Below are positions 2,821 through 36,614 of a stretch of 38,484 nucleotides of DNA, piece after piece. The translations under genes and the position numbers were made by a program. The stretch lies in the IMG/VR virus record IMGVR_UViG_3300022853_001252, positions 1-38,484 of that record. One strand, 5' to 3'. The notes under the pieces are model-generated. The model had not been told where the DNA came from. It searched no databases and saw only the letters and a program-made list of their open reading frames with translations. The stretch is from a virus. Every line of letters starts with the position of its first letter. The first letter of the stretch is position 1.

Positions 2821-4457
2821 TACTGTATTGTTGGTGGCTTCTCCTCTGCCTCTCCCTGCTCGTCTGCGGTCGCCTCAACTAGCCCCTCGACCATACCGGC
2901 AATCTCGTCGAGATCGTCGTCATCTTCATCCGGTGGCTTTTCCTCGTCTACCGGCTCCTCGTAGCCTTCAATGCCGAGCGCTGCACCGACGAATTCCAAC
3001 TCGTTCGGGTTTGCGTATAGAGCGGCGTACAACGCCTCGTCGGTGACGGCTACGCATCCAAGCACGTCGCACGTGTAGCGGGGACCTGCGGACATGTTGG
3101 CGGTGTTGACGGTCGTCCCGAGAAGTCCGCGCTTGACCATAAACGAGGCAAACCCGGGGGCGTAGGACAACGGGCGCCCGTAGGTTTCCTTGGTGTCTTC
3201 GTATTTGTCATAGTAAAGCGCGAAGTCGCACTGTCGGAGCTTTGCCCCGTAGCTATTCTTGATCATCGTCAGGCGGACGTTCTGCCCGTATGTGAGTTTA
3301 TCTCCTGACTTTTCCTTAATGTCCCCGACGCCCATCAGCGTGAACCTGTAGGCGCAGAACTGACGGAACGCCCGCCCGCCGATGCGCGTGTCGTTTTTAG
3401 TCTCGGAAGGTGTCATGAATGAAGGTAGGGATTTCTTCATATCGACGCGCTCGTTCTGGTGGTTTACGTAGATCATGACGCAGTTATACTCATCCATGAA
3501 CTCTCCCATCTCTCGCTTAGTGACCTGAGCGTGTTTTGAGTGCCCCATATTGGACCCAGAGAGGGCGTCTTTCGGCGCCTCTTTCTTAGCGTTCGCCGGT
3601 AAGCCCCAGCTTGATCGACCCACGGCCTCCGCGGAAGACTTAAGGCTGGACCAAGGGTCGACCACCACGAATATGGGGTTGCCCTTCGTCTCCGGGTTCT
3701 CGTCGCATCTCTTGCGAAGCTCGGGAACGGTTTGCTTGATCGTGTTGTCACACTCGACAAGCTGTCGGGCGCTGGAGAACTCGATAGTATTCAGGAGAAG
3801 CGCGGCCGTCTTCTTGTTTTTGTGCAGGATCCTGGAGATGTGCTCCGGCTTCATCTGTTTGTTCTCGCACTCGATATAGAGGGAGTAGCAGCCCATCATG
3901 GACGCCCTCCCCAAGAAGTCGAATATCCATGTGGTCTTCCCTACGGAGTCTGGGGCTACCATCTCGATGGCGGTAGGCGTGCGCAGACCGATGCATCCGA
4001 TGACGTTCTGCATGCCGATCTCCTCGAACGGAAAAAGTGTCTTACGTAGCATTGAGGGCGTGTATAAGCGGACGGGCCGCTTGGCGGACCTCTCGTTCAA
4101 GATGTCCATCGTTTTGTTCACGTTCTCCGCCATGCTGTGCAGAACTTTTCCTTGGTTATCGGACGTTATGCGACGCTTGATGGTTTGATTCTTGGAACTC
4201 AAAAGGTCGGGTTTGTAGGACGGTCTTTTCTTGGCTGCCTTTTTGGCTGCCTTTTTAGCGACCTTCTTGGCTGCGACCTTTTTAGCGGCTTTCTTAGCGG
4301 CTTTCTTGGCGGGCACCCTCTTGGCTACCTTATCGTTGGCTGTCTTATCGTTGGCTGCCTTAATGGTTTCGTATATCTTCAATGAGATTTCCGCTGATGT
4401 GGCGGTGGTTTTATTTTCCTCCGGCTCCTTTTCTGAAGTCTTTTCGTTTTCGTTCAT
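2820..4457 (-). CDS. RecA/UvsX-like recombinase with histone-like Lys/Ala-rich N-terminal tail
   Basis: A 545-residue P-loop ATPase of the RecA fold, expected to form filaments on single-stranded DNA and drive strand exchange in phage recombination and repair. The Walker A is APDSVGKT (about 168-175). The Walker B strand is IFVVVD (Asp at about 267), followed by PWSSL, and the NHQNE segment near 345 resembles the RecA L2 approach. The tail at 45-77 is unusual: repeated AAKKAAKK units like the tail of histone H1, absent from ordinary RecA and UvsX, presumably binding DNA non-specifically. The C-terminus is strongly acidic (DEEKPPDEDDDDLDE), as in many RecA-like proteins. It heads a tight run with the 159-aa and RecQ-like genes. 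A DnaB-type ATPase is the main alternative, but RecA fits better. Confidence 0.85.
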   Translation of the reverse strand: MNENEKTSEKEPEENKTTATSAEISLKIYETIKAANDKTANDKVAKRVPAKKAAKKAAKKVAAKKVAKKAAKKAAKKRPSYKPDLLSSKNQTIKRRITSDNQGKVLHSMAENVNKTMDILNERSAKRPVRLYTPSMLRKTLFPFEEIGMQNVIGCIGLRTPTAIEMVAPDSVGKTTWIFDFLGRASMMGCYSLYIECENKQMKPEHISRILHKNKKTAALLLNTIEFSSARQLVECDNTIKQTVPELRKRCDENPETKGNPIFVVVDPWSSLKSSAEAVGRSSWGLPANAKKEAPKDALSGSNMGHSKHAQVTKREMGEFMDEYNCVMIYVNHQNERVDMKKSLPSFMTPSETKNDTRIGGRAFRQFCAYRFTLMGVGDIKEKSGDKLTYGQNVRLTMIKNSYGAKLRQCDFALYYDKYEDTKETYGRPLSYAPGFASFMVKRGLLGTTVNTANMSAGPRYTCDVLGCVAVTDEALYAALYANPNELEFVGAALGIEGYEEPVDEEKPPDEDDDDLDEIAGMVEGLVEATADEQGEAEEKPPTIQ

Positions 4458-4484
4458 AGTAATTTGAGATGGGTAAAAGTTAGA

Positions 4485-4515
4485 AAAGGCCGAGCAGCGG
4501 GGCTGCTCGGCCTTT
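4485..4515 (-). terminator. Rho-independent terminator after the 537-aa gene
   Basis: A perfect 14-bp stem (4485-4498 with 4502-4515) and a 3-base loop. On the minus strand it is followed by TTTTCTAACTTTT, a T-rich tract. It lies 30 bases past the stop of the minus-strand gene ending at 4546 and before the recombinase start at 4457. Confidence 0.85.
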
Positions 4516-4545
4516 GGTAGTAGAGTGCGTGTGCGCTCTCTTGTG

Positions 4546-6159
4546 TTAGTCCAGGAGTAGGATCACCTCATCAAGGAGAGGCTGCGGGACTTGGACGGAT
4601 GCGTCTCCTCCGGTTACTTCGTAGACACGGCGTGCCCAGCTATCAACGGACGCCTTCACGTCCTCGGAGAGTGCGGCGTAAGCGTCGTCGTCAAACGGGT
4701 TGCGGCGGATCTTAAGGATAGCATCCTCCGGGCTTTCCTGGTCGGACCCGCCCATAGGCGGCGGTGTGTCCTCCATAGCAGGTGGCGTGTCCTCCATGGG
4801 CGGCGGTGCATCCTCCGTAGGGCGTGCGATCTCAAACAGACCACACACAGCGATACCTACCCAAGTGGACCCGTCGACGCAAACTTTGTAGTTGTCGGCT
4901 TTCCCGGATTCGTAGACTTGCTGTAGCTCAGCGCAGGTGCGCTTCTTGGGGGCCTCACCTTTAACGCCGGACCAATACTTTTCGCCGCTTTCCTTAGCCG
5001 GGCCAGGATCTGGGGATCTCTCTACAGGAGCTGACGCAGGCGCTTTGTCCACGGGGGCCCCTTGCGCGGGGACGAAGGATTCGGACGCCCCGCCTGTAAC
5101 AGCGGAAAGCGGATCCACGAAGCTCGCCGCGGGCTTAGACGCCGCGGGAGAGTTAGAGATCAACGAGCGCTTGCGGCGCTCAGGAATTTCACAGCGATGC
5201 CCGCACGCCTCTCGGATCATCTCCGTAGTGACCTCCTCCGCGTAGCTGTTCACCATGTATTCCACTTGTTCCTCGTAGGTGGGGAAGTTCCAGTTGTTCG
5301 GGTCGCACAGCGGGAAACGCTTCGCGAGGACATCATCCGTGATGGTCGTCTCCTTTGGACGATCGTCGAGGTATCCCCGAGACTCGGTCAGGCACAGCAC
5401 GTTTGTCTCCGTGTTATCCTTGGCGTCAACCTTGAATTTGGAGACGTGAAACGGAAGCGCCTTCTTAGGGTTGGTGGGGTCTCCGATGAGATAGCGCGGG
5501 TAGTTCGGATCACGAGGCTGCGCGTTACCCTCGTGAAGCCATCTGAGCTGCTCCACGACGTAGGAGTGCGCCGTGCCGGTGTAGAGAAGGACCTGCATAC
5601 GCTTTTCCTTGTTCTTGTTGTCGCTCCCGTAACCGAGAGAAACGTATCGCGACGATCGGTTGGGAACGAGAGCGTCGGTGCGAGCGTCAGGCTTGGACAA
5701 GAAGAAATCTTTCTGGTCTTTGGTGAACTCTTTGTGAAACCTGACCCAGGTTTTGAGATCGTCGAATGCGTCCGCCAACTGATCGCGACCGCATTCGCCT
5801 CCGCCGATCATGTTTCCTCGGTTCTGAGGGGACAGCCAGTGCTCCTTTTTCTCACCCAAGAACGGGTAGACGATGAGGGGGACCGCCCAAGAAGACGGAG
5901 CGAAGTGCCTGCCGTCGTGCGCATCGGTGACATCAGTCCAGCACGGAGCGACGGATGTAGGGAAGGCCTGGTCCTCGGTGTCTAGGTTGTAGTAGTCGTG
6001 CGAAGGGAGGATGATAGTGTCAAGCTGTTCCTTTACGGAGCCGGCGCCGATCATCTCGATGCTGTAGCCGAGTCCACGAAGTTTCTTTGAGAGCAGCGGG
6101 CGATAGTCGCCCTCTCCCCAGATCTTAGTTTCGTCGGTGATTGGAATAAATTTAGCCAT
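4546..6159 (-). CDS. Large unknown protein with Pro/Met/Asp tandem repeats (537 aa)
   Basis: I do not recognise this family. The N-terminal two thirds (1-330) look globular with many aromatic and charged residues. Around 340-400 is a low-complexity Pro/Ala/Ser linker. Near residues 455-475 a short repeat of about seven residues recurs (DAPPPME, DTPPAME, DTPPPMG), and the end is acidic. An acidic tail and a place directly before a RecA-like gene would suit a single-stranded-DNA-binding or recombination mediator protein, but no OB-fold signature is visible, so this is only a guess. The gene has its own terminator (4485-4515) and a hairpin before it (6179-6210), so it is probably a separate, perhaps highly expressed, unit. 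The leader is TAAAAAAAATACTACT with no SD sequence. Confidence 0.85.
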   Translation of the reverse strand: MAKFIPITDETKIWGEGDYRPLLSKKLRGLGYSIEMIGAGSVKEQLDTIILPSHDYYNLDTEDQAFPTSVAPCWTDVTDAHDGRHFAPSSWAVPLIVYPFLGEKKEHWLSPQNRGNMIGGGECGRDQLADAFDDLKTWVRFHKEFTKDQKDFFLSKPDARTDALVPNRSSRYVSLGYGSDNKNKEKRMQVLLYTGTAHSYVVEQLRWLHEGNAQPRDPNYPRYLIGDPTNPKKALPFHVSKFKVDAKDNTETNVLCLTESRGYLDDRPKETTITDDVLAKRFPLCDPNNWNFPTYEEQVEYMVNSYAEEVTTEMIREACGHRCEIPERRKRSLISNSPAASKPAASFVDPLSAVTGGASESFVPAQGAPVDKAPASAPVERSPDPGPAKESGEKYWSGVKGEAPKKRTCAELQQVYESGKADNYKVCVDGSTWVGIAVCGLFEIARPTEDAPPPMEDTPPAMEDTPPPMGGSDQESPEDAILKIRRNPFDDDAYAALSEDVKASVDSWARRVYEVTGGDASVQVPQPLLDEVILLLD

Positions 6160-7666: not shown

Positions 7667-9349
7667 CTACCTTCCGGCGAACATCGTGATGTCCGCGCAG
7701 TTCTCCAGCATGTTGTGCTTAGCCGACGCCGGGCGGTAATCCCGGGACTCGAGTTCTTTCTTCTCTGCGCCCTTTGGTGGGGTGGACCATTTGTAGACGA
7801 TGTCCGTGTCGATGGAGAACTTCAATAGCCGCCCATCGTAGTCCCACGTGTTGTGATCGCACATGTAAACCTGGTGCAGCCTGGCTACTAGAAAGCGCTC
7901 TTCCGGCGGGCACATCGTAACCACAGAGTCATACAGGCACGTCATGCCGCGCGCTTGTAGACCAAGACGCCGGTAAGCCTCCCCCAGCATGCGGCAGGCC
8001 CTAGCGGCGGTAGCTCCAACTGACTCCTGCAAAGGGTAGTTACGGAGCTCGCGACCCATCGACGACTCTAGTGAGTTTCTCACCCTCCAGTTAACACCAG
8101 ACCCAGCGCTATGCGTGAGGCAGTGGCGTATGCGTCCCGACTTCGCACGATACATTCCGTGCGTCTTAGGTATGGCTGCCATCTCTTGCATGAACTCCGT
8201 AGCCCTAGGCTGCCGGGCCTCAATCATGTCGAGCCCCTTATCGCCAGTTCCTGGTTCAGGTTTGATGCCCGTGTCGGACTCGATCTTTCTTTCGATAGAC
8301 CCGGCCGACGCGCCGTAAGCGGCGCTGTTCGAAACAAGAACTCCGGAACACGTAAACCTGTGTCGCGGTCCAGCATCTAGGATATCATACGTTTGCGCTT
8401 TCCCGCAGATGAACGCGCGACACGCCGCGTCAAGGTCTCCGCGCCCGACAACCTGCGCCTTTTTGGAATTTCTGGAAACATCGGGCAAGATGCTGAGCGG
8501 GCCAGCGGACCTGACAAGCGTAAGCGATCTGGCGCAAGCCTCTTCTAGCCTGCACTTACCGATTTCTTCCGTCCAGACTTCGTGCAGCCTTGTTGCTCGA
8601 AGTCCTTGATACTTGATGATTTCTTTGACTCCTGTATTGACGACGCCCCCATGACTTACCCACTCGACGCCGTCCCATAACAGATCGTCAAGAGAGACCG
8701 ACTGCAAAGCTACGACGCCACGGTCGCGGGTCAGGACTTCAGAGTCCTCCGCGACGCAAAACCCAATAGCCTTGGCCCCGGTCCTCTGCACCTTCTCGTT
8801 CATCATCTCGCGACCTTTATCGAAAGTCGCTTCGGCAAGAGACCAGTGGGTGTCATACTTGGCTTTCTTCAGATTGCCAAGTGAGTCGCGAGCCAGCATG
8901 TCTTCAGTGACAGGTCCCAGCTTCTCCCCGTCTTTCCAGACGTTCATGATGAAGTCTGGGTCCCGCGCCTCGACGGGAACGGGAGACTTTTCAGAAAACC
9001 CCACGCGTACCGACGACGCGCCGTAAGGGTTGTCGCTGTTCAGGTAAGCCCAGTCCGGGTCAGGCTCATACAGGATGCGCATCAAATCCGCGTCACCAGA
9101 TATGATAGCGAGCGCGAAGCTCTCCGCAGCGCTGTAGTCGCTCTCCACAAAGACCATACCATCCGGTGCCGTAACAACGGACCGTATAGAAGGTAAATCC
9201 TCAGGATCTTTATCCACCCATTGTAGTAGGTCTTCTGGGAGGTCACCCTCCTCGTGTGCTTCTTTTATAACTGCTCCTATAGACTTTGATATTCTCTTGT
9301 TTACATATGCGGGCCAGTTCAGCGTGTTAGGCATCCATGACCGGGTTCT
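7667..9349 (-). CDS. Family A DNA polymerase, 3' exon, containing an in-frame mini-intein
   Basis: This is the C-terminal half of the polymerase whose N-terminal exon is 10039-12462. The reading frame is open upstream of the ATG at 9334: the codons before it read RTRSW, which with the following MPNTLNWP continues the family A element TG-R-x-R-S-x-x-PN. Motif A is SDYSAAE, with the metal-binding Asp. Motif B (O helix) reads RTGAKAIGF then SAAYGAS, interrupted by the 144-residue intein at 8327-8758. Motif C is CLYDSVV, with Tyr where most family members have His before the catalytic Asp. After intron and intein removal the polymerase would be about 1,224 residues. Translated on its own from 9334 this segment would make a useless fragment, so RNA splicing is required. 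Confidence 0.88.
   Translation of the reverse strand, partial: RTRSWMPNTLNWPAYVNKRISKSIGAVIKEAHEEGDLPEDLLQWVDKDPEDLPSIRSVVTAPDGMVFVESDYSAAESFALAIISGDADLMRILYEPDPDWAYLNSDNPYGASSVRVGFSEKSPVPVEARDPDFIMNVWKDGEKLGPVTEDMLARDSLGNLKKAKYDTHWSLAEATFDKGREMMNEKVQRTGAKAIGFCVAEDSEVLTRDRGVVALQSVSLDDLLWDGVEWVSHGGVVNTGVKEIIKYQGLRATRLHEVWTEEIGKCRLEEACARSLTLVRSAGPLSILPDVSRNSKKAQVVGRGDLDAACRAFICGKAQTYDILDAGPRHRFTCSGVLVSNSAAYGASAGSIERKIESDTGIKPEPGTGDKGLDMIEARQPRATEFMQEMAAIPKTHGMYRAKSGRIRHCLTHSAGSGVNWRVRNSLESSMGRELRNYPLQESVGATAARACRMLGEAYRRLGLQARGMTCLYDSVVTMCPPEERFLVARLHQVYMCDHNTWDYDGRLLKFSIDTDIVYKWSTPPKGAEKKELESRDYRPASAKHNMLENCADITMFAGR
8327..8758 (-). other. Mini-intein in DNA polymerase motif B (144 aa)
   Basis: The extein sequence RTGAKAIGF / SAAYGAS is the family A O-helix motif, with exactly this segment inserted. 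Residue 1 is Cys in block A (CVAEDSEVLT); block B contains TRLH, giving the TxxH motif; block F reads YDILDAGPRHRF; block G is GVLVSN, followed by Ser as the +1 nucleophile. There is no LAGLIDADG or HNH endonuclease, so it is a minimal, no longer self-mobile form. The penultimate residue is Ser, not the usual His, which is known in some active inteins but may slow Asn cyclisation. Removal is needed for polymerase activity, since the O helix binds the incoming nucleotide. Confidence 0.92.
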
Positions 9350-10038
9350 CGTTGTGTTCAGCCTAGCTCGTTAAGCTAAGCCCGCCACGTTTGGTGACAG
9401 CTGCAGTTTATTTATTATGTCTGCAGACCAGACTATATCATGACCCGACGCGTGCCGGGTCCCTACTATTTCGAACCACTTGGTTCTACTCCCTTTCGGG
9501 ATAGTCGTTGCACGTTCCGCCATGCGGCGGCTTCGCTCAGGATTGCCTTCGAAAAGGGTTCCCCTGAATTAAATAGGTTTGCTTTAATCATTACTGATTA
9601 AAGGGGCGAGTTTTAGACAAACTAATTCGCGGACCTCGGCAAAGGTGGCGCGATAACGGATTCGGATAAGTTTTAAGCCGTTCTCCTTGGCGTATTCATT
9701 CTTTCTTCGGTCGTGCTCTTTCAAGTTCTTAGTGTCGAAGTATGTGTCAGGTCCTTCTTGGTAATGCTGCTCCCCGTCTGCCTCTACCAAGGTTTGACAA
9801 CCTGCGATGTAGAAGTCGTAGCGTAGAGGTAGGCGCTCGGACGCGCCTAGCAGTCCTCTAAGTTTAGGTTATTCACCTTACCCCGCTCTGCGGGCGTGCA
9901 CACCCCGCAATAGCGCTTCTGCCGCATGACAGCGGCACTTACTTCTGTGAATGTGTTGCCGCACATCTCACAATCTTTCTCTAATACTTCCATTACAGCA
10001 CCCTAAGCGGATGCTTTTGTTTGTCTACGAAAATTTTC
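9350..10038 (-). mobile_element. Group I self-splicing intron in the DNA polymerase gene
   Basis: The polymerase frame breaks after STTETG and resumes as RTRSW. Between lie all four conserved group I core strings on the minus strand: P (AATTCAGGGGAA, near 9572-9560), Q (AATCCTGAGC, near 9543-9534), R (GTGCAACGACTATCC, near 9513-9499) and S (ATGATATAGTC, near 9441-9431). P7 forms from GACTA and TAGTC, and a P8-like stem CCCGAAAGGG lies between. Predicted borders are exon ...ACGGGT then intron, and intron ...CAACG then AGAACC, giving U before and G at the end of the intron as the class requires. The joined exons read TETG-RTRSW, matching the polymerase family spacing. I could not find a convincing P1, so the 5' border may be off by a few bases. 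SPO1-type phages also carry an intron in a related polymerase gene. Confidence 0.9.
9584..9993 (-). pseudogene. Decayed PD-(D/E)XK homing endonuclease inside the group I intron
   Basis: An ATG at 9993 opens a 48-residue frame with a zinc-binding N-terminus (CEMCGNTF ... RYCGVC) that stops at 9847. A second frame, open from 9868 to 9584, has no ATG and reads LPLRYDFYI ... VEADGEQHY ... HDRRKNEYAKENGLKLIRIRY, the catalytic core of a Vsr-like/DUF559-like nuclease (Asp of YDF, Glu of VEADG, then QH). Members of this family normally have both parts in one frame, with roughly 40 more residues between them. Here a frameshift and probably an internal deletion separate them, so it is most likely inactive. 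It ends just before the intron P element, the usual place for an intron-borne gene. Confidence 0.75.
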
Positions 10039-12462
10039 ACCCGTTTCCGTTGTTGATAGCTGACCGTGTATCCTGCCGTCACTGGCAAGCCACGAGTGCA
10101 GTCCGTGCTCCTCTGTTGTCGTATCTCCCGTCTCCGGGTCCTCGTGGCTCGACGCCTCCTTCAGGAAGGCCTTAGCGATGTTACCGACGGCGTTGAGGTC
10201 CAGCAGTTGATCCAGCGCCGACAACTGCTCCGATAGGATCGACAGCGTCTGCTTGTCTACCGCGGGGGTGTAGACCTTCTGACGTTCTGGGGGAAGCTCC
10301 AGCACCTTGTCCCACGCCATACTTGGCAGGCCCGCCGCTTTCTGGTTCGTCGACTTGATGGGTTCGAGACCTTCGACGGTAAACAACCACCTGCGCATCT
10401 GGTCCGGACTTCGGATGTTGAACTTCTGAGAGTCCACGAAATGCCGCAGCAAAGACAACCAACTGGACATACCTTTGGAGTCTCCCCCTGCGAACAGGAG
10501 CTCCTTTACTTTCTGAGCGATGGCATTCTCATCTTTTCTGGTGATGTCTCCCTTCATGTTCTGCAGCGCCTTGAAGCCCAACTCTCGAACAATGCGGTTC
10601 TGTAGCTTGTTGGCGGCCTCCTCGTGGATTCGCCTCTGTAGTTTGACCTCAAGCTTATCTCTTGCGAAGGCAAACAGAACCCTCAGGTCGTCCAGCATGG
10701 GGACGTCCACTGGTAGACCCAGCATCGTGAAGTCTGTGAAGACGTCAGTCACGAACGGGTTAAACAGGTTCACGTAGTAGTCCCATAGCGTTTGCGCCTC
10801 TAGTTGGCGCCTGATAAGCGGGTAGGCCCGAAGGGGGGCGATGACGTCCCGAGCCCCGTAAGGGTGCAGGATCGCGCTAGGGACGAAGCCGTAGCCGCCT
10901 TTTACGAGGTCTTTGTTCTTACGCTTCCACATCACGAGCGCTTGATCATACCGACCGAGGGTCGTGTATTTCATCCCGATGCCGCGCTCTAACCCTAACT
11001 CGCTCGATTCGTCACACGTCTGCTGGGCGAACTCGGTGTCCATCTCGCAGCGCTGATACACCGTGATGCCTAGCTTGTGATGCATCCACGGGGAGTCGGC
11101 AGCGTAGTGGTGCCCGATGTACTTGGCGTTGATACGAGAGAGCATGTCCGCGAGAGGAGCCCCTACAGCCTTGTAAGCTTTGGCCTCTACCTCGTGGCGA
11201 CTCTCGTTTCTCCCTCGAACCGCGCGCACTAGAGCGTCCGTGCGCGACATGGCACGCCGGACGTGCTCGGCGGGAGAACAGTCATCGGCGTTTTCCGAGT
11301 GCTTGTCTATCATACGACTGAAAAAGTCACCCGTCTCCAGAAGCTGAGGTGCCGGCGTTTCTCTAGTCCAACTATGCTCGTCTCGTCTCACCCACCCCTC
11401 CTCGCCCTCCGGAGGGTCGCCGTCGGCCCAATTCTCGATTATCGCTTTCGAGATTGAAGGTTCGACATTTTTAGGAAAGGGAGGTGACAGGTCCGGCGGT
11501 AGATCCGGCGGCGCGTCCGGGTGGTCGAAGCTCCACTCGTTCTTCTCGTTACGGAACTCAATTACGACCGCGTCCCTTTCAGACCAGGCGAACTGTATTG
11601 TTCGCAGCTGCCCGTCGATGTGCGTGCGGCCGTGCCACTCGCAGTCAACGGCGAGCAGAGGGCAGCCATCGTCCGACCTTATACCGGGCCACTCGTCGGC
11701 ACCCTGGGACTCGGGGCAACCGTTGGCAAGGTCCTCGATGCGCGCGATCCAGTCCTCGAGGTCTTGCTCGTTACGCAGGACCTCGTAGTTGACCTGGTCG
11801 TTTGGTATGACTCCGGTCCTCAGGATGTCTACGCGCCGAGCAATCTCCTTAAAGTCCACCCGGAACGTCTCGTAGAAGTCTGGCTTAGTGACCAGCGTGA
11901 ACGGCGCGTGCATCAAATAGACGTGCGCTTGATGGTCTTCGGACCAGAACCAGCAACCGTGACCGTCTTTGAATCCGATCTTTTGATCCGACACCATGTC
12001 GTAAGCCGGCTTGCCCATGCAGACGATAATCTTCGGCTTAACGCGTCGGATTTCGTCCTCTAGGACGGGGAGGCCCCACTTCAGTATCTTGGTGGCTGGC
12101 TTTGCTCTCCTGGCCTTAGGGAGGAGCCACTTGCACACGGCAGTGAAGTAGCACGTGTCCATGTCAATCCCGGCGCGTAAGGCTACGTCCCGGATAAGCC
12201 CGGTGGACCCTTTCAAGTATTCCGCCGGCTGGTTAATGCGAAACCCGAATTTGGTCTCGGCTTGATTAGTCGCTTCGTCGTCCTCCACGGAGGCCGTCAC
12301 GAACATGACGTCGTATTGCTCCTGCCCCAATACGGGGGACCGACCGGCGACGTAAAACACGTCATCGATGTGGCGGCTTACCTTCAGTGTCTTCGGGGGC
12401 GCACCGTCGTCATACGGGGGTTCGACTTCGTCCTGCGCGAACCCCCTTCGTCTGTCGCTCAT
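10039..12462 (-). CDS. Family A DNA polymerase, 5' exon: UDG-like domain + 3'-5' exonuclease + start of polymerase
   Basis: 808 codons before the predicted 5' splice site; without splicing the frame runs 11 codons into the intron to a stop at 10003. Domain order: a uracil-DNA-glycosylase-like fold at about 35-205 (family 4/5 features such as VKPKIIVCMGKPAYD); a DnaQ/RNase D-type proofreading exonuclease from about 265 to 550, with Exo I LLAVDCEWHG (Asp and Glu), Exo II-like IGHHYAADSPWM and Exo III-like YGARDVIAPLRAY; then the thumb and the palm entry ending in GRIHGQLSTTETG. The same fusion is known for the SPO1 DNA polymerase. Whether the UDG-like part cuts uracil is unclear. The start overlaps the upstream gene's stop (ATGA). 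Together with 7667-9349 it is the main replicative polymerase. Confidence 0.9.
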
Positions 12463-27914: not shown

Positions 27915-29090
27915 TTAGGTGAGAGTGCGGACTTCGGCGATGAGTGCGAGCCTGCGCTCTACAAACTCGGACACGACATTGTTGCCATCGCGGTCTCCGC
28001 GGTTGAATAGGTCGAGCGCCGTGTCCTGTAGATCAGCGTCGATGTCGGCCTCGAAGCGCTTGCATACAAAATGCTCAACACCAAGATCCTCCCCGTCGAT
28101 TTTATCAGCTCGGAGCGTGTGGACTTTGACATCCGCAAGTGGGAAGCATTTGATGACGCACCGATGCGCATCGAGGATGGAGTAAACACGGTTTGTGGTC
28201 CCAGGAACTTCGCGGCTGAACTCTATGTAAGCCAGGGGATACTCATCCTTGCGAGACTCGAGCTTCTCCGTCAGGGCATCGAGGTCGTCCTCCGTCTTTA
28301 CGATCGCCTTGATAAACGACCTAGTCGTCAGCGGTATATTGTTATCCAGAGTCATATGCTCGGAGCTGAGACAATACACCGGTAGGGATTTATCTTGAGG
28401 CTCGTTGGAGCTGCACATCTCCAGAGATCCCGGGTAGGCGACTGTCGTCAACCCGCCCCCGGGGCGATCTATCTGAACTGCTCCCTGAACGTGAATATCC
28501 CCGAGCAACCAGGCCTTGTTCTTTTTTGAGATCGGGAACTCGTCGACTCGTAGTGGGTCAGACTTACCAGCGTAAAACGGCACAACACCATCAACGAAAC
28601 CGTGATAGAGAACGACGTCCGCCCCTCGGGCGCTTGCTTCGATCTCCGCTATGTTGTGCCGGAACTTGCCAGCGTTGTAGGCGGGAATACCGACGAAAGT
28701 GAAACCTTCGTATACTTCGGAACGATCGTCCATCGGTATAATTCCGTCGCTATTTTCCGTGCTGCGGTCTGGGAATAGGGTAGCCAGCCACGTAGGAGTG
28801 GAGTAATCGTGGTTACCGGTTATCGCTAGCATCTTCTTTCCTAGCTTTCGTAGTAGGGAGTCTGCGCGTATCAACTGCTTGATCATCTTGGCCGACGGCC
28901 TGGAGTTGTCGAAGTTGTCCCCGCATAATACGAAGATGTCGACTACCGGAGCTCCGGCTTTGATCGCACGCAAAAACGCAGTGAAGAAGTCTTCGCTGCG
29001 TTTTGGTGTTGCGTATTGGGTGTCGCGCAAGTGCACGTCACCGATGTGTCCGATTAGAATTGAGCTTTTTGTGGTCTTTTGTTGTTCCAT
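27915..29090 (-). CDS. sbcD: Mre11/SbcD-like (T4 gp47-like) nuclease
   Basis: A 391-residue calcineurin-like metallophosphoesterase, the nuclease partner of the Rad50-like protein. The five metal motifs are present: GDVHLRD, CGDNFDNS, TGNHDYS, YHGFVDG and GDIHVQG. A C-terminal 130-residue part probably binds the Rad50-like ATPase. The ATG at 29090 (MEQQKTTKSS) is chosen because the frame upstream, open to 29267, is antisense-like basic sequence within the RNase H-like gene and the GHIGDVH motif normally lies within 20 residues of the start. It overlaps the upstream gene by 37 bases. Confidence 0.92.
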   Translation of the reverse strand: MEQQKTTKSSILIGHIGDVHLRDTQYATPKRSEDFFTAFLRAIKAGAPVVDIFVLCGDNFDNSRPSAKMIKQLIRADSLLRKLGKKMLAITGNHDYSTPTWLATLFPDRSTENSDGIIPMDDRSEVYEGFTFVGIPAYNAGKFRHNIAEIEASARGADVVLYHGFVDGVVPFYAGKSDPLRVDEFPISKKNKAWLLGDIHVQGAVQIDRPGGGLTTVAYPGSLEMCSSNEPQDKSLPVYCLSSEHMTLDNNIPLTTRSFIKAIVKTEDDLDALTEKLESRKDEYPLAYIEFSREVPGTTNRVYSILDAHRCVIKCFPLADVKVHTLRADKIDGEDLGVEHFVCKRFEADIDADLQDTALDLFNRGDRDGNNVVSEFVERRLALIAEVRTLT

Positions 29091-29809
29091 GATTGTTGGT
29101 CTTTGAATTTGTGAGATACGGCGGCCATCTCGTCTTGGGCCGCCATGATTGTTTTGCGTGCGACTCCGCACACGGCGTCGCACACGGCTTGTCCCTCGAC
29201 TGAGTTGCGAGGGATCGACACTGGGGTGATGCATAAATGGCGAGCTATAGTGGAATAGCGCATCCATAGATCCACCTCAGAGTTTCTATTCATGAGGGGG
29301 TCTCCGTCTTCGTTGAACAGGATCGATTTGGCGATGTTAGCGCGGTCCGTGAACCATAATACGGAGACGCGCTCGTCATTTACGAGAGATCGAAGGACGC
29401 CACCAGCCTGGCTGGCCTCATACTTCTCGAGTTCGTCCATCTCTTCCTTTTTGATTTCGCATCGAATGCGAAGTATTTCGTGAAGGCCGTCGAGGAACGC
29501 GCGCATTTCTGAACGAGCCACCGTAGACCCGTATGTCGCTCCGAATACGACGTCGTGGCTCAAGACTCCCCGGACGTCACTTTCCGATAGGGAGTCTGGA
29601 GGGAGACCCACACGTTCTATGACGGCGGCGTAGGCGCCCCACCCTTTAGTGCACCCACTGCCGTCGGTGTACATGATGAAGTCGTGCTCTTGCGGGGCGG
29701 GAGCGTTAAACATCAGGAACTCTTCAGCAGTCGTATCTCTTGGTATCGTCAGGTTGTCCCACCAAGATTTCTCCCGGGGCCACCTGTAACCTTTAGGATC
29801 GGTGATCAT
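29054..29809 (-). CDS. RNase H-like protein
   Basis: A 251-residue protein with the RNase HI pattern: MYTDGSG with Asp at about 49, then ARSEMRAFLDGL with Glu at about 101, then LWFTDRANI with Asp at about 155, and a final acidic residue in VCDAVCGVAR. In phages such enzymes remove RNA primers from lagging-strand fragments. Between the second and third motifs there is an extra charged helix (residues 115-132). The N-terminal 40 residues (WPREKSWWDNL) are not part of the fold. It is coupled to the gene upstream (ATGA) and overlaps the Mre11-like gene by 37 bases. RNase H-fold nucleases other than RNase HI are possible. Confidence 0.75.
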   Translation of the reverse strand: MITDPKGYRWPREKSWWDNLTIPRDTTAEEFLMFNAPAPQEHDFIMYTDGSGCTKGWGAYAAVIERVGLPPDSLSESDVRGVLSHDVVFGATYGSTVARSEMRAFLDGLHEILRIRCEIKKEEMDELEKYEASQAGGVLRSLVNDERVSVLWFTDRANIAKSILFNEDGDPLMNRNSEVDLWMRYSTIARHLCITPVSIPRNSVEGQAVCDAVCGVARKTIMAAQDEMAAVSHKFKDQQSWNNKRPQKAQF

Positions 29810-30342: not shown

Positions 30343-30463
30343 TGGTAATTTGTTTGATTTTTTCTCCTTGTTCTCGGGTCCACACGACATAGCCTGACGA
30401 CCGCGCCTTGGAGAAACGATCCGCTTTCTCTTTTTCGACCTGCTTTGTAGATTTTGATGACAT
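30257..30463 (-). CDS. Possible small charged protein (68 aa), uncertain
   Basis: A Lys/Glu-rich frame starting at 30463 (MSSKSTKQVEKEKADRF) and ending at 30257. Its 3' part overlaps the start of the 178-aa gene by 86 bases and its ATG overlaps the terminase ATG on the opposite strand almost exactly. The composition is protein-like, but the long overlap and the lack of an SD site leave it doubtful. Confidence 0.3.
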   Translation of the reverse strand: MSSKSTKQVEKEKADRFSKARSSGYVVWTREQGEKIKQITNEKQSTEERDAIVAETENRESVEERFNS

Positions 30464-30911
30464 GGATGACTATTCTAATTCTTTCGTTTACGACCTTATC
30501 AGCGAGCTTCGTAGAGACCCAAGGCGAAGAGCCGCCGTAAGTAAAGCTCTGCGCAACCTTGACAGCGTAAACAAAGCGCTGCGGGAAGGCAAGGCTTCGC
30601 GGTCTGATCTGAGCAAGGCCCAGGCCGAGATAATCCCAGCGTCGGGGTTTAATTTTGGATTCCTGATGGGGTCTTATTTCAAAACTTACCCGGAAGACAA
30701 GCCCCTGAGTTTCGTGGACCGCCCGTTTATGTTCGCCATGACCTCTCTAGCGCCCAACAGCGTGGTAACACTGATGGCCGGACGTCAGGTCGGTAAGTGC
30801 GCACGCGGAGACACTGAGGTTGATACGAACCGGGGGCGTATGTCTTTGCTGCATATATTCGAGTCAGGGGTCAGTCTTGACTATCCAGGGCCGACCTTAA
30901 CACGTCAATGA
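30462..30911 (+). CDS. terL: Large terminase, N-terminal part, fused to the N-part of a split intein
   Basis: A 149-residue product. Residues 1-112 are the start of the large terminase ATPase: a helical N-terminus (YDLISELRRDPRRRAAVSKAL) and the strand entering the P-loop, VVTLMAGRQVGK. Instead of the expected Ser/Thr, the next residue is Cys113, which opens an intein (block A CARGDTEVDT). The intein part has 37 residues to the stop at 30909-30911. The C-terminal terminase part, beginning with STG, is made from 31987-33930. The two proteins must be joined by trans-splicing to restore GRQVGK-STG. The start is the ATG at 30462 (MDDYSNSF); an in-frame ATG at 30408 adds 18 unconvincing residues. 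Confidence 0.9.
   Translation: MDDYSNSFVYDLISELRRDPRRRAAVSKALRNLDSVNKALREGKASRSDLSKAQAEIIPASGFNFGFLMGSYFKTYPEDKPLSFVDRPFMFAMTSLAPNSVVTLMAGRQVGKCARGDTEVDTNRGRMSLLHIFESGVSLDYPGPTLTRQ
30798..30911 (+). other. Split intein, short N-part (IntN, 37 aa)
   Basis: Begins at Cys113 of the N-half gene, immediately after GRQVGK of the terminase Walker A loop, and ends at the natural stop codon. It holds only block A (CARGDTEVDTNRGRMSLLHIF). Common split inteins have N-parts of about 90-120 residues; this one is cut after block A, like the atypically split AceL-TerL intein known from a terminase, whose N-part has 25 residues. The last 10 residues (YPGPTLTRQ) may be dispensable, as they overlap the end of the opposite-strand gene. 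Confidence 0.9.
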
Positions 30912-31788
30912 TTTCCAAGGACCTGACCAGAACGGCTGATTCCTCAAATTCCTCAGGCTCTCCTTTTTTGAATACGATTGCATCCTTCAGGATAGCCACG
31001 AGAGACTTACAGAACGCATGCCTCACCACATCATTGGCCAAGTGCCAGCGAACACGGAGAGACTCGGAGTCTCCTTTGCGGTCACAGCAGGCGTTAACTA
31101 GGCTCGTCGTGTAGCTCGTCCTGGATATTGCTAGCCTGGTGGCCAGCGTATTCAAGAAATGATCGGTCTCTAGGGGGAAGCCATTGTCCAGAGTCCTGCG
31201 CATGTCGAGGTAGGCGTCCTGCAGCGCGGGGCTTACACGGGATACGTTCACGAACATAGCAAAAGTCCGGCATTCGAAAGACCGACTATCTAGGAAATAC
31301 ATGTGCTCCAGGTCTTTGTCGTCTGAATCCATGACGAAGACCGATAGAACCTTCGCTAGGTTTGCGTGGTTCCCGGCGCTGCAACCGGGACGACTTTCGC
31401 TGCTGACTACGAGAACTATATTCTCGTCCATCACTGCGTCCTTGGCTTCCTTGATCAGCTCCTCCCTGTCTACACTTACGTCGTCCTCTAGCTCGCGCGG
31501 CATCGGCCCCGATAGAATATCGTTGCAGTAGTATTCGACGAGTCCGTCGGGTCCGTAGACGTCCCACGCATCGACTCCGTGCCGCAGCATGAACTTTTTG
31601 TATTTTCCGGAGTGCGCCGCTTGGTCTTTCCACTTTACAGCGGCTTTTGCGGTCTCCCTGTAAACGGTGACGTCGGGACCTTTTGGGTCCGCACTGACCG
31701 CTTGAAGAGCGTAAAGCCCCGGAAGGTAAGGCGCGGGACGATCTGTGATATGTTTCTTAACTCTGTTTTTATTTTTTCTTGAAGTCAT
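30871..31788 (-). CDS. Unknown protein encoded in the gap of the split terminase gene (305 aa)
   Basis: Read against both terminase halves; its 3' end overlaps the IntN gene by 41 bases. The N-terminus is very basic (MTSRKNKNRVKKH), then comes YLPGLYALQAVS, an acidic middle (ELEDDVSVDREELIKEAKDAVMDE) and a helical C-terminal half with several Cys and His (VNACCDRKGD, RWHLANDVVRHAFC). In other fractured genes this gap is where a free-standing homing endonuclease lies. I see no LAGLIDADG, GIY-YIG, HNH or PD-(D/E)XK pattern here, so either it is an unrecognised nuclease or an unrelated cargo gene. The leader is ACTAATTA before ATG, without SD. Confidence 0.8.
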   Translation of the reverse strand: MTSRKNKNRVKKHITDRPAPYLPGLYALQAVSADPKGPDVTVYRETAKAAVKWKDQAAHSGKYKKFMLRHGVDAWDVYGPDGLVEYYCNDILSGPMPRELEDDVSVDREELIKEAKDAVMDENIVLVVSSESRPGCSAGNHANLAKVLSVFVMDSDDKDLEHMYFLDSRSFECRTFAMFVNVSRVSPALQDAYLDMRRTLDNGFPLETDHFLNTLATRLAISRTSYTTSLVNACCDRKGDSESLRVRWHLANDVVRHAFCKSLVAILKDAIVFKKGEPEEFEESAVLVRSLEIIDVLRSALDSQD

Positions 31789-31986
31789 TAATTAGTTTTG
31801 AGGCAGCCCTACAAAAATCAACACACAAAGAAAAATACTTCGTGTGGGATGCGTGATTTTTGCCCAAATCTGCCGAAATGGGGTGTGTCGCAAACAGGGG
31901 CCCCTCGCGGAGCGGCCCTGCGTATCCTTGCATATTCATCCGTTAGGATGTGGGGGCCCTCGCCGCCGTAGCTTGCGAGGGTTTTC

Positions 31987-32376
31987 TTGACGAGTGACAA
32001 TAACGAAGCTACGAGTTATCTCGTGCTTAAAGAAAGTGAAATCGCGGAAGAGAGGTCGGTGGAGCATATGGACTTAAAGGTGTCCGCCCCGGGTGGCGCA
32101 GTCCGCGTCACGCACGTTTGTAAGACTGTCGCAATGACCGTGTGGGAAATTAAGACAGCCCATCACGTCTTACGATGCGCTGGTAAGCATCTGGTGATCG
32201 GAGTCAACGGTCCCACGCCTGTTGACCAAATCAGGGTGGGAAGTTTCATAAAAACTGATGCCGGCTACGCGCCGGTCTTGAGCGCCAGGAACACTGGCAC
32301 CTCCGAAGAGCTGTATGATCTCCGCGTTGATAGCGACGACCACATCTACTACACGGGAGGCATCGCCAGCCACAAC
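31987..32376 (+). other. Split intein, long C-part (IntC, 103-130 aa)
   Basis: Contains the block B TxxH motif (IKTAHHVLRC), block F (ELYDLRVDSDDHIYY) and block G (GGIASHN) with penultimate His and terminal Asn, followed directly by Ser, the +1 residue, of the terminase P-loop. No endonuclease domain. With the ATG at 32068 its length is close to the 104-residue C-part of AceL-TerL. Confidence 0.92.
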
Positions 32377-33930
32377 TCCACCGGCCTGGGGGCCGCCGAG
32401 CTATTTAAGGCGAACGTATTACCGGGGTATAAGTCGCTCTACATAACCCCCCTACGGGAGCAGTTAAAGACGATCGCTGATAAGCTGATGGACATGCAGC
32501 GGGGATCTATATTCCCCCCGGACTACGTCACTTCGCGCGGGTATAAGAACAACCTCTATTACAAAGAGACGCCTGCCGGTGGATCAATTAAGCTCCTCAA
32601 CATCCTGACAGACGTTTCGAAAGTTAGGGGAAACAGCTGTCCCGTAGTGTGCTACGACGAATGCCAAGATCTCGACCCGGACCACATCCACGAGGTGGCG
32701 CAGGTCCAGAAAGCATACCCAGATTCTCGCGCTACGATCTTTGCGGGGACTTCTAAGGACCTCGACACATGTCTAGAGGCTCAGTATCAGATCGGGTCTC
32801 AGGGAGTGTGGCACATCCCGTGCGGATGTAAGGATAAGTTCCACGCGCTAAACGACGTGAAGGCGATACCCAAGATGATCAGCGTGCACGGTCTACGCTG
32901 CCCGAACAATGGGACGTTGCTCAACCCACTTTTGGGGGAGTTCGTGCACGCGGACAGGTCGAAGCTGGCATTAAACCGAGTGAGTTTTCACCTACCTCAG
33001 GTTATCGTTCCTGCCTACTCGGGGCCCGCTTTTCTCGATATTTACAACGACTTCAAGAGTTACCCCGAGAAGAAGTTTATGATGGAGGTCATGGGCATCG
33101 CCGTCGACGCTGGAATGGCCGAGCTCACGGAGACGGACCTCAAGAGGTGCTGCGACCCCGATAAGACGTTCGAGCAGCTGCAGAAGGATTACTTCAGCGG
33201 CGAGACGCGTTACGTCAAGCTATTCTCTGGCGTCGACTGGGGCGGGTCCGACTGGAACCCTGCAACGCGAACCAAGCAATCCTACACTGTGCACACTATT
33301 TACGGCATGCGGGGCGACGGTAAGATGGTCCTCCTCTACGCGAATCGTTACGCCGGTATGAACTATCAAGATATCGCCGGGACGATTGTTGAGGCTCATA
33401 ACGAGTATCATACATTCGCGATGGGGACAGATAACGGAGGCGGCGCTTACTACAACGCCTACATGCGGGACTGCGGACGACTCCCTACGGATAAGCTGAT
33501 TCACTTCAACTACTCCGACACGAAAATGTTCATCGACAGAATACCGCACCCGGAAGCGAATATTATGTCGCTTCACCGATCAGATTCTATATCTGCCCTA
33601 ATATCGGACATCAAAGCCCAGAACATTATATTCCCGAGGTGGAGCAGCTGCTACGGTTTCGTGAGCGACTGCCTCAACATGCGCCGCAACATCACGGAGG
33701 CGCCGTCCGGCCGGTCTGTCATGCGGTATGTGCGGCACGGATCCAAAGCTGACGACTTTATGCAGGCGACCAATTACGCTCTCATGATGAAGAGGATCAC
33801 AACCAAGGAGCCGACGATACCTAACAAGCAGATTCTTGACGAGCTGGCGAGTATGTTCGGGACCTCCACGGTGACTACTACGACACAGCAGTTTTCGGAC
33901 TACATGGACGACGGAATCGTGAGCGGGTAG
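31987..33930 (+). CDS. terL: C-part of a split intein fused to the C-terminal part of large terminase
   Basis: Residues 1-130 are the intein C-part and 131-647 the terminase. Terminase motifs after the splice point: STGLGAAELF (rest of Walker A), Walker B CPVVCYDECQDLD, motif III FAGTSKD, then the RNase H-fold nuclease with GVDWGGSDW, MGTDNGGGA and SKADDFMQA supplying the metal-binding Asp residues. Terminase drives DNA into the prohead and cuts it. Two starts are possible: TTG at 31987 with GAGGG five bases upstream, or ATG at 32068 (MDLKVSAPGG) with GGAG upstream, which gives a C-part of 103 residues. Spliced terminase would have about 629 residues, normal for the family. It overlaps the convergent protease gene by 31 bases. 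Confidence 0.9.
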   Translation: MTSDNNEATSYLVLKESEIAEERSVEHMDLKVSAPGGAVRVTHVCKTVAMTVWEIKTAHHVLRCAGKHLVIGVNGPTPVDQIRVGSFIKTDAGYAPVLSARNTGTSEELYDLRVDSDDHIYYTGGIASHNSTGLGAAELFKANVLPGYKSLYITPLREQLKTIADKLMDMQRGSIFPPDYVTSRGYKNNLYYKETPAGGSIKLLNILTDVSKVRGNSCPVVCYDECQDLDPDHIHEVAQVQKAYPDSRATIFAGTSKDLDTCLEAQYQIGSQGVWHIPCGCKDKFHALNDVKAIPKMISVHGLRCPNNGTLLNPLLGEFVHADRSKLALNRVSFHLPQVIVPAYSGPAFLDIYNDFKSYPEKKFMMEVMGIAVDAGMAELTETDLKRCCDPDKTFEQLQKDYFSGETRYVKLFSGVDWGGSDWNPATRTKQSYTVHTIYGMRGDGKMVLLYANRYAGMNYQDIAGTIVEAHNEYHTFAMGTDNGGGAYYNAYMRDCGRLPTDKLIHFNYSDTKMFIDRIPHPEANIMSLHRSDSISALISDIKAQNIIFPRWSSCYGFVSDCLNMRRNITEAPSGRSVMRYVRHGSKADDFMQATNYALMMKRITTKEPTIPNKQILDELASMFGTSTVTTTTQQFSDYMDDGIVSG

Positions 33931-36537: not shown

Positions 36538-36614
36538 TGGATGCGCGAGTCGGATTTGAACCGACGACCTTCAGTTTATGAGACTGACGAGCTACCTGGC
36601 TGCTCCATCACGCT
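36538..36614 (-). tRNA. tRNA-Met (CAU), initiator-like
   Basis: A complete cloverleaf on the minus strand: acceptor AGCGUGA/UCGCGCA (six pairs, one being U-G, and an A1-A72 mismatch), D arm GAGC-AGCCAGGUA-GCUC, anticodon arm UCAGU-CUCAUAA-ACUGA, variable AGGUC, T arm GUCGG-UUCAAAU-CCGAC, discriminator U and an encoded CCA at 36540-36538. The unpaired 1-72 position, the A11-U24 pair and the D and variable arms are nearly those of bacterial initiator tRNA-fMet, but the three G-C pairs of the initiator anticodon stem are absent (A-U, G-C, U-A instead). Confidence 0.93.

What the first reader, a model, noticed from the sequence alone, without database searches (positions are those of the whole stretch)
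30462..33930. Large terminase is encoded in two genes joined by an atypically split intein at the Walker A loop
Seen: the first gene ends ...LMAGRQVGK then CARGDTEVDT (intein block A) and stops after 37 intein residues; the second begins with blocks B (TAHH), F (LYDLRVDS) and G (SHN) and continues STGLG, the rest of the P-loop. Known: split inteins are rare and most break after about 100 residues; AceL-TerL, also in a terminase, has a very short N-part. Inferred: this is a new member of the atypically split class, and DNA packaging depends on trans-splicing. Both starting and finishing residues (Cys1, His-Asn, Ser+1) are intact.
Basis: partly seen in the sequence, partly recalled or inferred. 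Interest (0 to 1): 0.95.

Follow-up and report, generated by a model that had tools for sequence, protein, structure and literature searches.

The report
Phage terminase split by trans-splicing intein
In this uncultured phage the DNA-packaging motor protein is made as two separate pieces that very probably must be stitched together by a self-splicing protein element, a rare arrangement already known from a few other phage terminases, here with an unknown conserved gene lying backwards between the two pieces.

Summary
terL is encoded in two + strand genes. The first (30462-30911) ends ...GRQVGK followed by a 37-residue IntN (CARGDTEVDT...). The second (ending 33930) carries an IntC of about 118 residues ending ...SHN, then STGLG and the rest of the terminase. 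Splicing would give a 629-residue TerL with an intact Walker A loop that aligns without a gap to uninterrupted terminases. IntC matches phage TerL inteins (E 2e-22), VidaL by sequence (E 3e-6) and by predicted fold (E 2.5e-5). Three diverged phage lineages (six IMG/VR records) keep the same split, the same catalytic residues and purifying selection on both halves. No second terL was found in records up to 200 kb, and no RNA intron lies in the gap. It is a new member of the atypically split TerL inteins (AceL-TerL, GOS-TerL, Cat), split after the first helix. Corrections: block B is CAGKH (His codon 32188), not TAHH; the IntC start is probably GTG 32023. Trans-splicing itself is inferred, not shown.

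The parts
30462..30911 (+). terL-N gene: 112-residue N-extein ending GRQVGK, fused to IntN
   Evidence: 53% identical orthologue in L003/L006 and a further one in L028
30798..30908 (+). IntN, 37 residues, Cys1 and block A (CARGDTEVDT); stop 30909-30911
   Evidence: C1, A2, G4, D5, T6, V8, T10, G13, L17, I20, F21, G24 invariant in three lineages
30871..31788 (-). nested gene of 305 residues, unknown function, overlapping the last 41 nt of the terL-N gene tail to tail
   Evidence: same place and strand in all three lineages; pN/pS 0.55-0.71; no Pfam, NCBIfam or PDB match, weak PHROG hit only
31957..31981 (+). hairpin CCCTCGC-N11-GCGAGGG upstream of IntC, function unknown
   Evidence: one stem position is U-A, C-G and A-U in the three lineages; no matching motif elsewhere in the window
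31987..32015 (+). promoter-like TTGACG-N17-TACGAG, TTGACG conserved in three lineages
   Evidence: below the cut-off of the generic sigma-70 scan, so weak
32023..32376 (+). IntC, about 118 residues from GTG 32023, with blocks F and G ending SHN
32188..32190 (+). block-B histidine (CAGKHLV), H68 of the translated ORF
   Evidence: invariant and aligned with the block-B His of contiguous TerL inteins
32371..32379 (+). penultimate His, terminal Asn and Ser+1
32377..33930 (+). C-extein of TerL, 517 residues: rest of ATPase and nuclease
   Evidence: phrog_675 terminase large subunit E 3.2e-15; spliced product aligns to intact terminases

Best explanation
The two genes make TerL-N-IntN and IntC-TerL-C. 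The 37-residue IntN docks on IntC to complete a Hint fold. Cys1 attacks the Lys112-Cys bond, the ester moves to Ser+1, the terminal Asn cyclises, and the two exteins are joined as GRQVGK-STGLG. This restores the Walker A loop and yields one 629-residue terminase ATPase-nuclease. Shown here: the gene layout, intein homology, intact catalytic residues, conservation and selection. Inferred: that splicing happens in infected cells and that packaging needs it.
For: Cys1-xxGDT at the end of gene 1 and HN-Ser at the start of gene 2. IntC against a contiguous TerL intein profile E 2e-22, shuffles not above 6 bits. VidaL by sequence E 3e-6 and by AlphaFold2/Foldseek E 2.5e-5, with the atypically split Cat also matched. 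The same split in three lineages at 62-77% TerL identity, with synonymous sites near saturation and pN/pS 0.33-0.59 for IntN and 0.34-0.49 for IntC. Spliced product collinear with the inteinless L029 and Arash terminases, GRQVGK|STGLG against ARQCGK|SQNLS and GRQIGK|SVSLG. No other TerL in any of the records. Gap without an RNA intron at a permissive threshold, although the same search finds a group I intron in polA of this phage.
Against: No splicing data. IntN alone is too short for a significant profile match. The conserved nested gene and the separate promoter-like site are not explained. IntC model confidence is moderate (mean pLDDT 65).
Confidence: 0.9

Rival explanations
1. The two genes are relics of a decayed intein-bearing terL, and another terminase packages the DNA.
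For: Records are fragments of unknown completeness, so a second terL cannot be excluded absolutely.
Against: Purifying selection on TerL-N, IntN, IntC and TerL-C across three lineages; all catalytic residues kept; one TerL locus only in records of 78-200 kb.
Confidence: 0.03
2. The pieces are joined at the RNA level: the gap is an intron carrying an antisense gene inside a cis-intein.
For: The phage does use a group I intron, in its DNA polymerase gene.
Against: No intron family matches the gap down to E 5. IntN ends in its own stop, with a tail that differs in length (37, 33, 32) between lineages. IntC has its own conserved upstream element.
Confidence: 0.03
3. The halves work as a non-covalent terminase complex without splicing.
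For: Not excluded by sequence alone.
Against: The break lies between Lys and Ser of the P-loop, and the splicing residues are conserved in all three lineages.
Confidence: 0.03

Closest known systems
AceL-TerL and GOS-TerL split inteins and their consensus Cat (PDB 6dsl)
   Same: Inserted in a large terminase; short IntN (25 and 37 residues as published, PMC11766414) and long IntC; split after the first helix (S2 site, PMC13014065); cysteine-dependent
   Different: Terminase of the phrog_675, Arash-like kind; 1.1 kb gap with a conserved opposite-strand gene. Whether the AceL-TerL or GOS-TerL loci carry such a gene was not tested.
VidaL intein (PDB 6vgv)
   Same: Atypically split, short IntN; best sequence and fold match
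   Different: IntN only 16 residues, split earlier at the S1 site (PMC13014065)
Delftia phage PhiW-14 TerL (GQ357915)
   Same: Split at the same P-loop point with short IntN CVQGDTEIK...
   Different: Only about 48 bp between the halves and no nested gene; T4-like terminase
Fractured genes with split inteins (for example AceL NrdHF, PMC7891396)
   Same: Host gene broken inside the intein with an unrelated gene in the gap
   Different: The AceL NrdHF gap holds a GIY-YIG homing endonuclease, here no endonuclease signature was found; AceL NrdHF is split at the canonical site

Membership tests
Class 1 intein | Cys/Ser/Thr at position 1, terminal Asn after His, nucleophile at +1 | tested here: met
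   Cys1, His129-Asn130, Ser131 invariant in three lineages
Class 1 intein | Block B TxxH | tested here: inconclusive
   His conserved in CAGKH, but Ala stands where Thr is usual; contiguous TerL inteins of phages mostly have Ala too (CADDH)
Class 1 intein | Hint fold | tested here: met
   IntC model matches intein structures, VidaL best at E 2.5e-5; IntN and IntC could not be folded together
Atypically split TerL inteins (S2 type) | IntN of about 15-37 residues on one protein, the rest on another | tested here: met
   IntN 37, 33 and 32 residues in the three lineages; IntC about 118
Atypically split TerL inteins (S2 type) | Split after the first helix | tested here: met
   By alignment only: the break falls in the variable stretch between block A with the first helix and the conserved KF/EI segment of contiguous TerL inteins
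Atypically split TerL inteins (S2 type) | Trans-splicing activity | not testable with these tools
   Needs co-expression or proteomics
Fractured gene with homing endonuclease in the gap | Endonuclease gene between the halves | tested here: inconclusive
   Nested protein has no Pfam, NCBIfam or PDB match, and only a chance-level PHROG hit (E 0.15); model too poor to judge its fold

The most novel reading that the evidence does not exclude
The fracture is a control device rather than a frozen accident: the halves are transcribed separately, the first in convergence with the nested opposite-strand gene and the second from its own hairpin-preceded promoter, so that active terminase forms only when both are made late in infection.
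Probability: 0.12. Interest if true: 0.75.

Novelty: new member of a known kind. Interest (0 to 1): 0.45.

Why it matters
Naturally atypically split inteins are few and are used as tools for protein labelling; this adds three sequence-diverged natural pairs with a Cys1 N-part short enough for chemical synthesis. An arrangement kept over long divergence, with the same nested gene, makes the question of why phages keep their packaging motor in two pieces testable.

Tried and rejected
RNA intron in the gap: no Rfam match. Second terL: none. Function of the nested gene: Pfam, PHROGs, NCBIfam and PDB profiles all without a significant hit; AlphaFold2 model of mean pLDDT 47 and Foldseek without a match below E 0.03, so meaningless. 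A resemblance of its N-terminal part to the RNase H1 hybrid-binding domain was only an impression (PHROG E 0.15). Further relatives: repeated scans of IMG/VR return the same three lineages, and the 85,000-species prokaryote genome collection none. An IntN-only profile against PDB is too short to be informative. An intein tree does not resolve whether the TerL splits arose once. Campylobacter phage CP220 first looked like the same site, but its intein lies three residues upstream.

Full report
What is there. The window is a 38,484-base virus record; the same terL region, 100% identical over the two terL halves and the gene between them, lies in IMG/VR record 3300022843_000013 of 77,760 bases. 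On the + strand, 30462-30911 encodes 149 residues ending LMAGRQVGK-CARGDTEVDTNRGRMSLLHIFESGVSLDYPGPTLTRQ-stop. The second gene runs to 33930 and contains an IntC ending LYDLRVDSDDHIYYTGGIASHN, directly followed by STGLGAAELFK. The second protein matches the large-terminase family phrog_675 over residues 140-600 (E 3.2e-15). Joining the exteins gives 629 residues.

Is it an intein. IntC with IntN in front matches VidaL in the PDB (E 3e-6); a profile of three IntC sequences also matches DnaX, GyrA, gp41-1 and Cat inteins. A profile built from five contiguous TerL inteins of cultured phages finds the window IntC at E 2e-22 and those of the relatives at E 9e-18 and 5e-17, while 3,000 shuffled sequences stay at or below 6.2 bits. 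The AlphaFold2 model of IntC (mean pLDDT 65, core 74-89) has VidaL as best Foldseek match, followed by other inteins, Cat included. TIGR01443, the intein C-terminal region, scores 15.2 bits against a cut-off of 15.6. IntN alone is too short for statistics; it is identified by Cys1-xxGDT directly after the P-loop lysine, by its position in the same place as IntN of PhiW-14 and the first residues of the contiguous inteins of Vibrio phages VPALA and BX-1, and by its conservation.

Is it in use. Scans of IMG/VR found two further lineages: L003-L006 (64% identical spliced TerL) and L028 (62%); these two are 77% identical to each other. All have the same three-gene layout, the same insertion point and the same catalytic residues. 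Synonymous sites are near saturation while non-synonymous change is limited: pN/pS 0.23-0.36 for TerL-C, 0.30-0.47 for TerL-N, 0.34-0.49 for IntC and 0.33-0.59 for IntN. The fracture therefore predates the divergence of the three lineages, and the intein has stayed under selection. Only one TerL is found in any record, with the caveat that none is known to be complete. An uninterrupted relative (L029) and Salmonella phage Arash align straight across the junction: ARQCGK|SQNLS and GRQIGK|SVSLG against GRQVGK|STGLG.

Corrections. The conserved block-B histidine is in CAGKHLV (codon 32188); TAHH is TRDF or TREF in relatives. As in the contiguous TerL inteins (mostly CADDH), alanine stands where TxxH inteins have threonine. 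The start at TTG 31987 is doubtful: TTGACG is conserved at this place in all three lineages but lies out of frame in L003, so it looks like a -35 element, followed at 17 or 16 bases by TACGAG or TACGAT in two lineages and by TTACGG in the third. The generic promoter scan does not reach its threshold there, so this remains a suggestion. GTG 32023 is conserved in all three, and the stretch after it (EIAEERS) is kept as protein: between the window and L003 the codons of those seven residues differ only at silent positions. In the alignment this stretch matches the KF segment of contiguous TerL inteins, so it probably belongs to the intein.

Not in the finding. Between the halves lies an opposite-strand gene (30871-31788, 305 residues). 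It is kept in the same place in all three lineages (31-51% identity) and always overlaps the end of the terL-N gene tail to tail, by 41, 22 and 20 nt. It has pN/pS of 0.55-0.71, no significant family or structure match, and no relative outside these phages in the collections searched. Upstream of IntC is a hairpin with one stem position that is U-A, C-G and A-U in the three lineages. These two features are the unexplained part.

Compared with what is known. Published natural atypical split sites lie either after beta-strand 2 (S1: VidaL, PolB16) or after the first helix (S2: AceL-TerL, GOS-TerL), with IntN of 15-37 residues (PMC13014065). GOS-TerL has a 37-residue IntN and AceL-TerL 25 (PMC11766414). 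The present one is of the S2 type by alignment. Fractured genes with a homing endonuclease between the halves are known, for example AceL NrdHF (PMC7891396); here no endonuclease signature was found. In annotated phages, Delftia PhiW-14 and Agrobacterium Atu_ph07 also have TerL split at this point without a nested gene. Hence: new member of a known kind, with an unusual and conserved gap.

Contrast inside the same phage. Its DNA polymerase gene carries a group I intron (9411-9629, E 3e-12) and a contiguous mini-intein in motif B. In the five related records no group I intron is found and the polymerase is one open frame in which the parts flanking the intein abut. Those elements look recent and mobile, whereas the TerL split is old and fixed.

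Shown and inferred. Shown: layout, homology, conservation, selection, predicted fold of IntC. Inferred: that the halves splice in trans, and that the terminase needs it. Not determined: role of the nested gene, transcription, host, completeness of the genome.

Noticed in passing
window 7667-12462 (- strand): DNA polymerase A is in two open frames (12462-10003 and 9334-7667) separated by a group I intron (9411-9629, Rfam E 3e-12) with a small ORF (9584-9790) that looks like an EDxHD homing endonuclease but has no Pfam match; relatives have one open frame of 1168-1265 codons without the intron.
   Followed up: partly
window 7667-9334 (- strand), residues about 193-337 of P0005: Contiguous mini-intein in polymerase motif B: GAKAIGF|CVAEDSEVLT...GVLVSN|SAAYGAS. 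The five related records lack it: residues 2-192 and 331-554 abut there.
   Followed up: partly
window 10003-12462 (- strand): The polymerase N-part begins with a uracil-DNA glycosylase-like domain (Pfam UDG, E 3e-9) fused to the 3'-5' exonuclease.
   Followed up: no
L043:2465-4656 (Agrobacterium phage Atu_ph07): TerL is split at the same P-loop point with Ser1 (GRQLGK|SVHKSTDITYNDK...) and Thr+1 (SHN|TTVAA): a candidate natural cysteine-less atypically split intein; the genome paper does not mention an intein or a split.
   Followed up: partly
L010:2422-2895 and 2944-4701 (Delftia phage PhiW-14): The TerL N-part with IntN is an unannotated ORF; only the IntC-TerL-C gene is annotated as gp17.
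   Followed up: partly
L045:1102-3216 (Vibrio phage vB_VmeM-32) and L009:2986-3879 (Salicola phage SCTP-2): TerL genes that begin with an IntC at the P-loop and carry a second intein at or near Walker B (contiguous in VmeM-32, apparently broken off in SCTP-2); the TerL-N parts were not located.
   Followed up: no
window 29054-29809 (- strand): RNase H-like protein (YTDGSG...GWGAYAA motif; Pfam RNase_H only E 0.14), syntenic in all three lineages.
   Followed up: no
window 36541-36614 (- strand): tRNA gene (Rfam RF00005, 57 bits).
   Followed up: no
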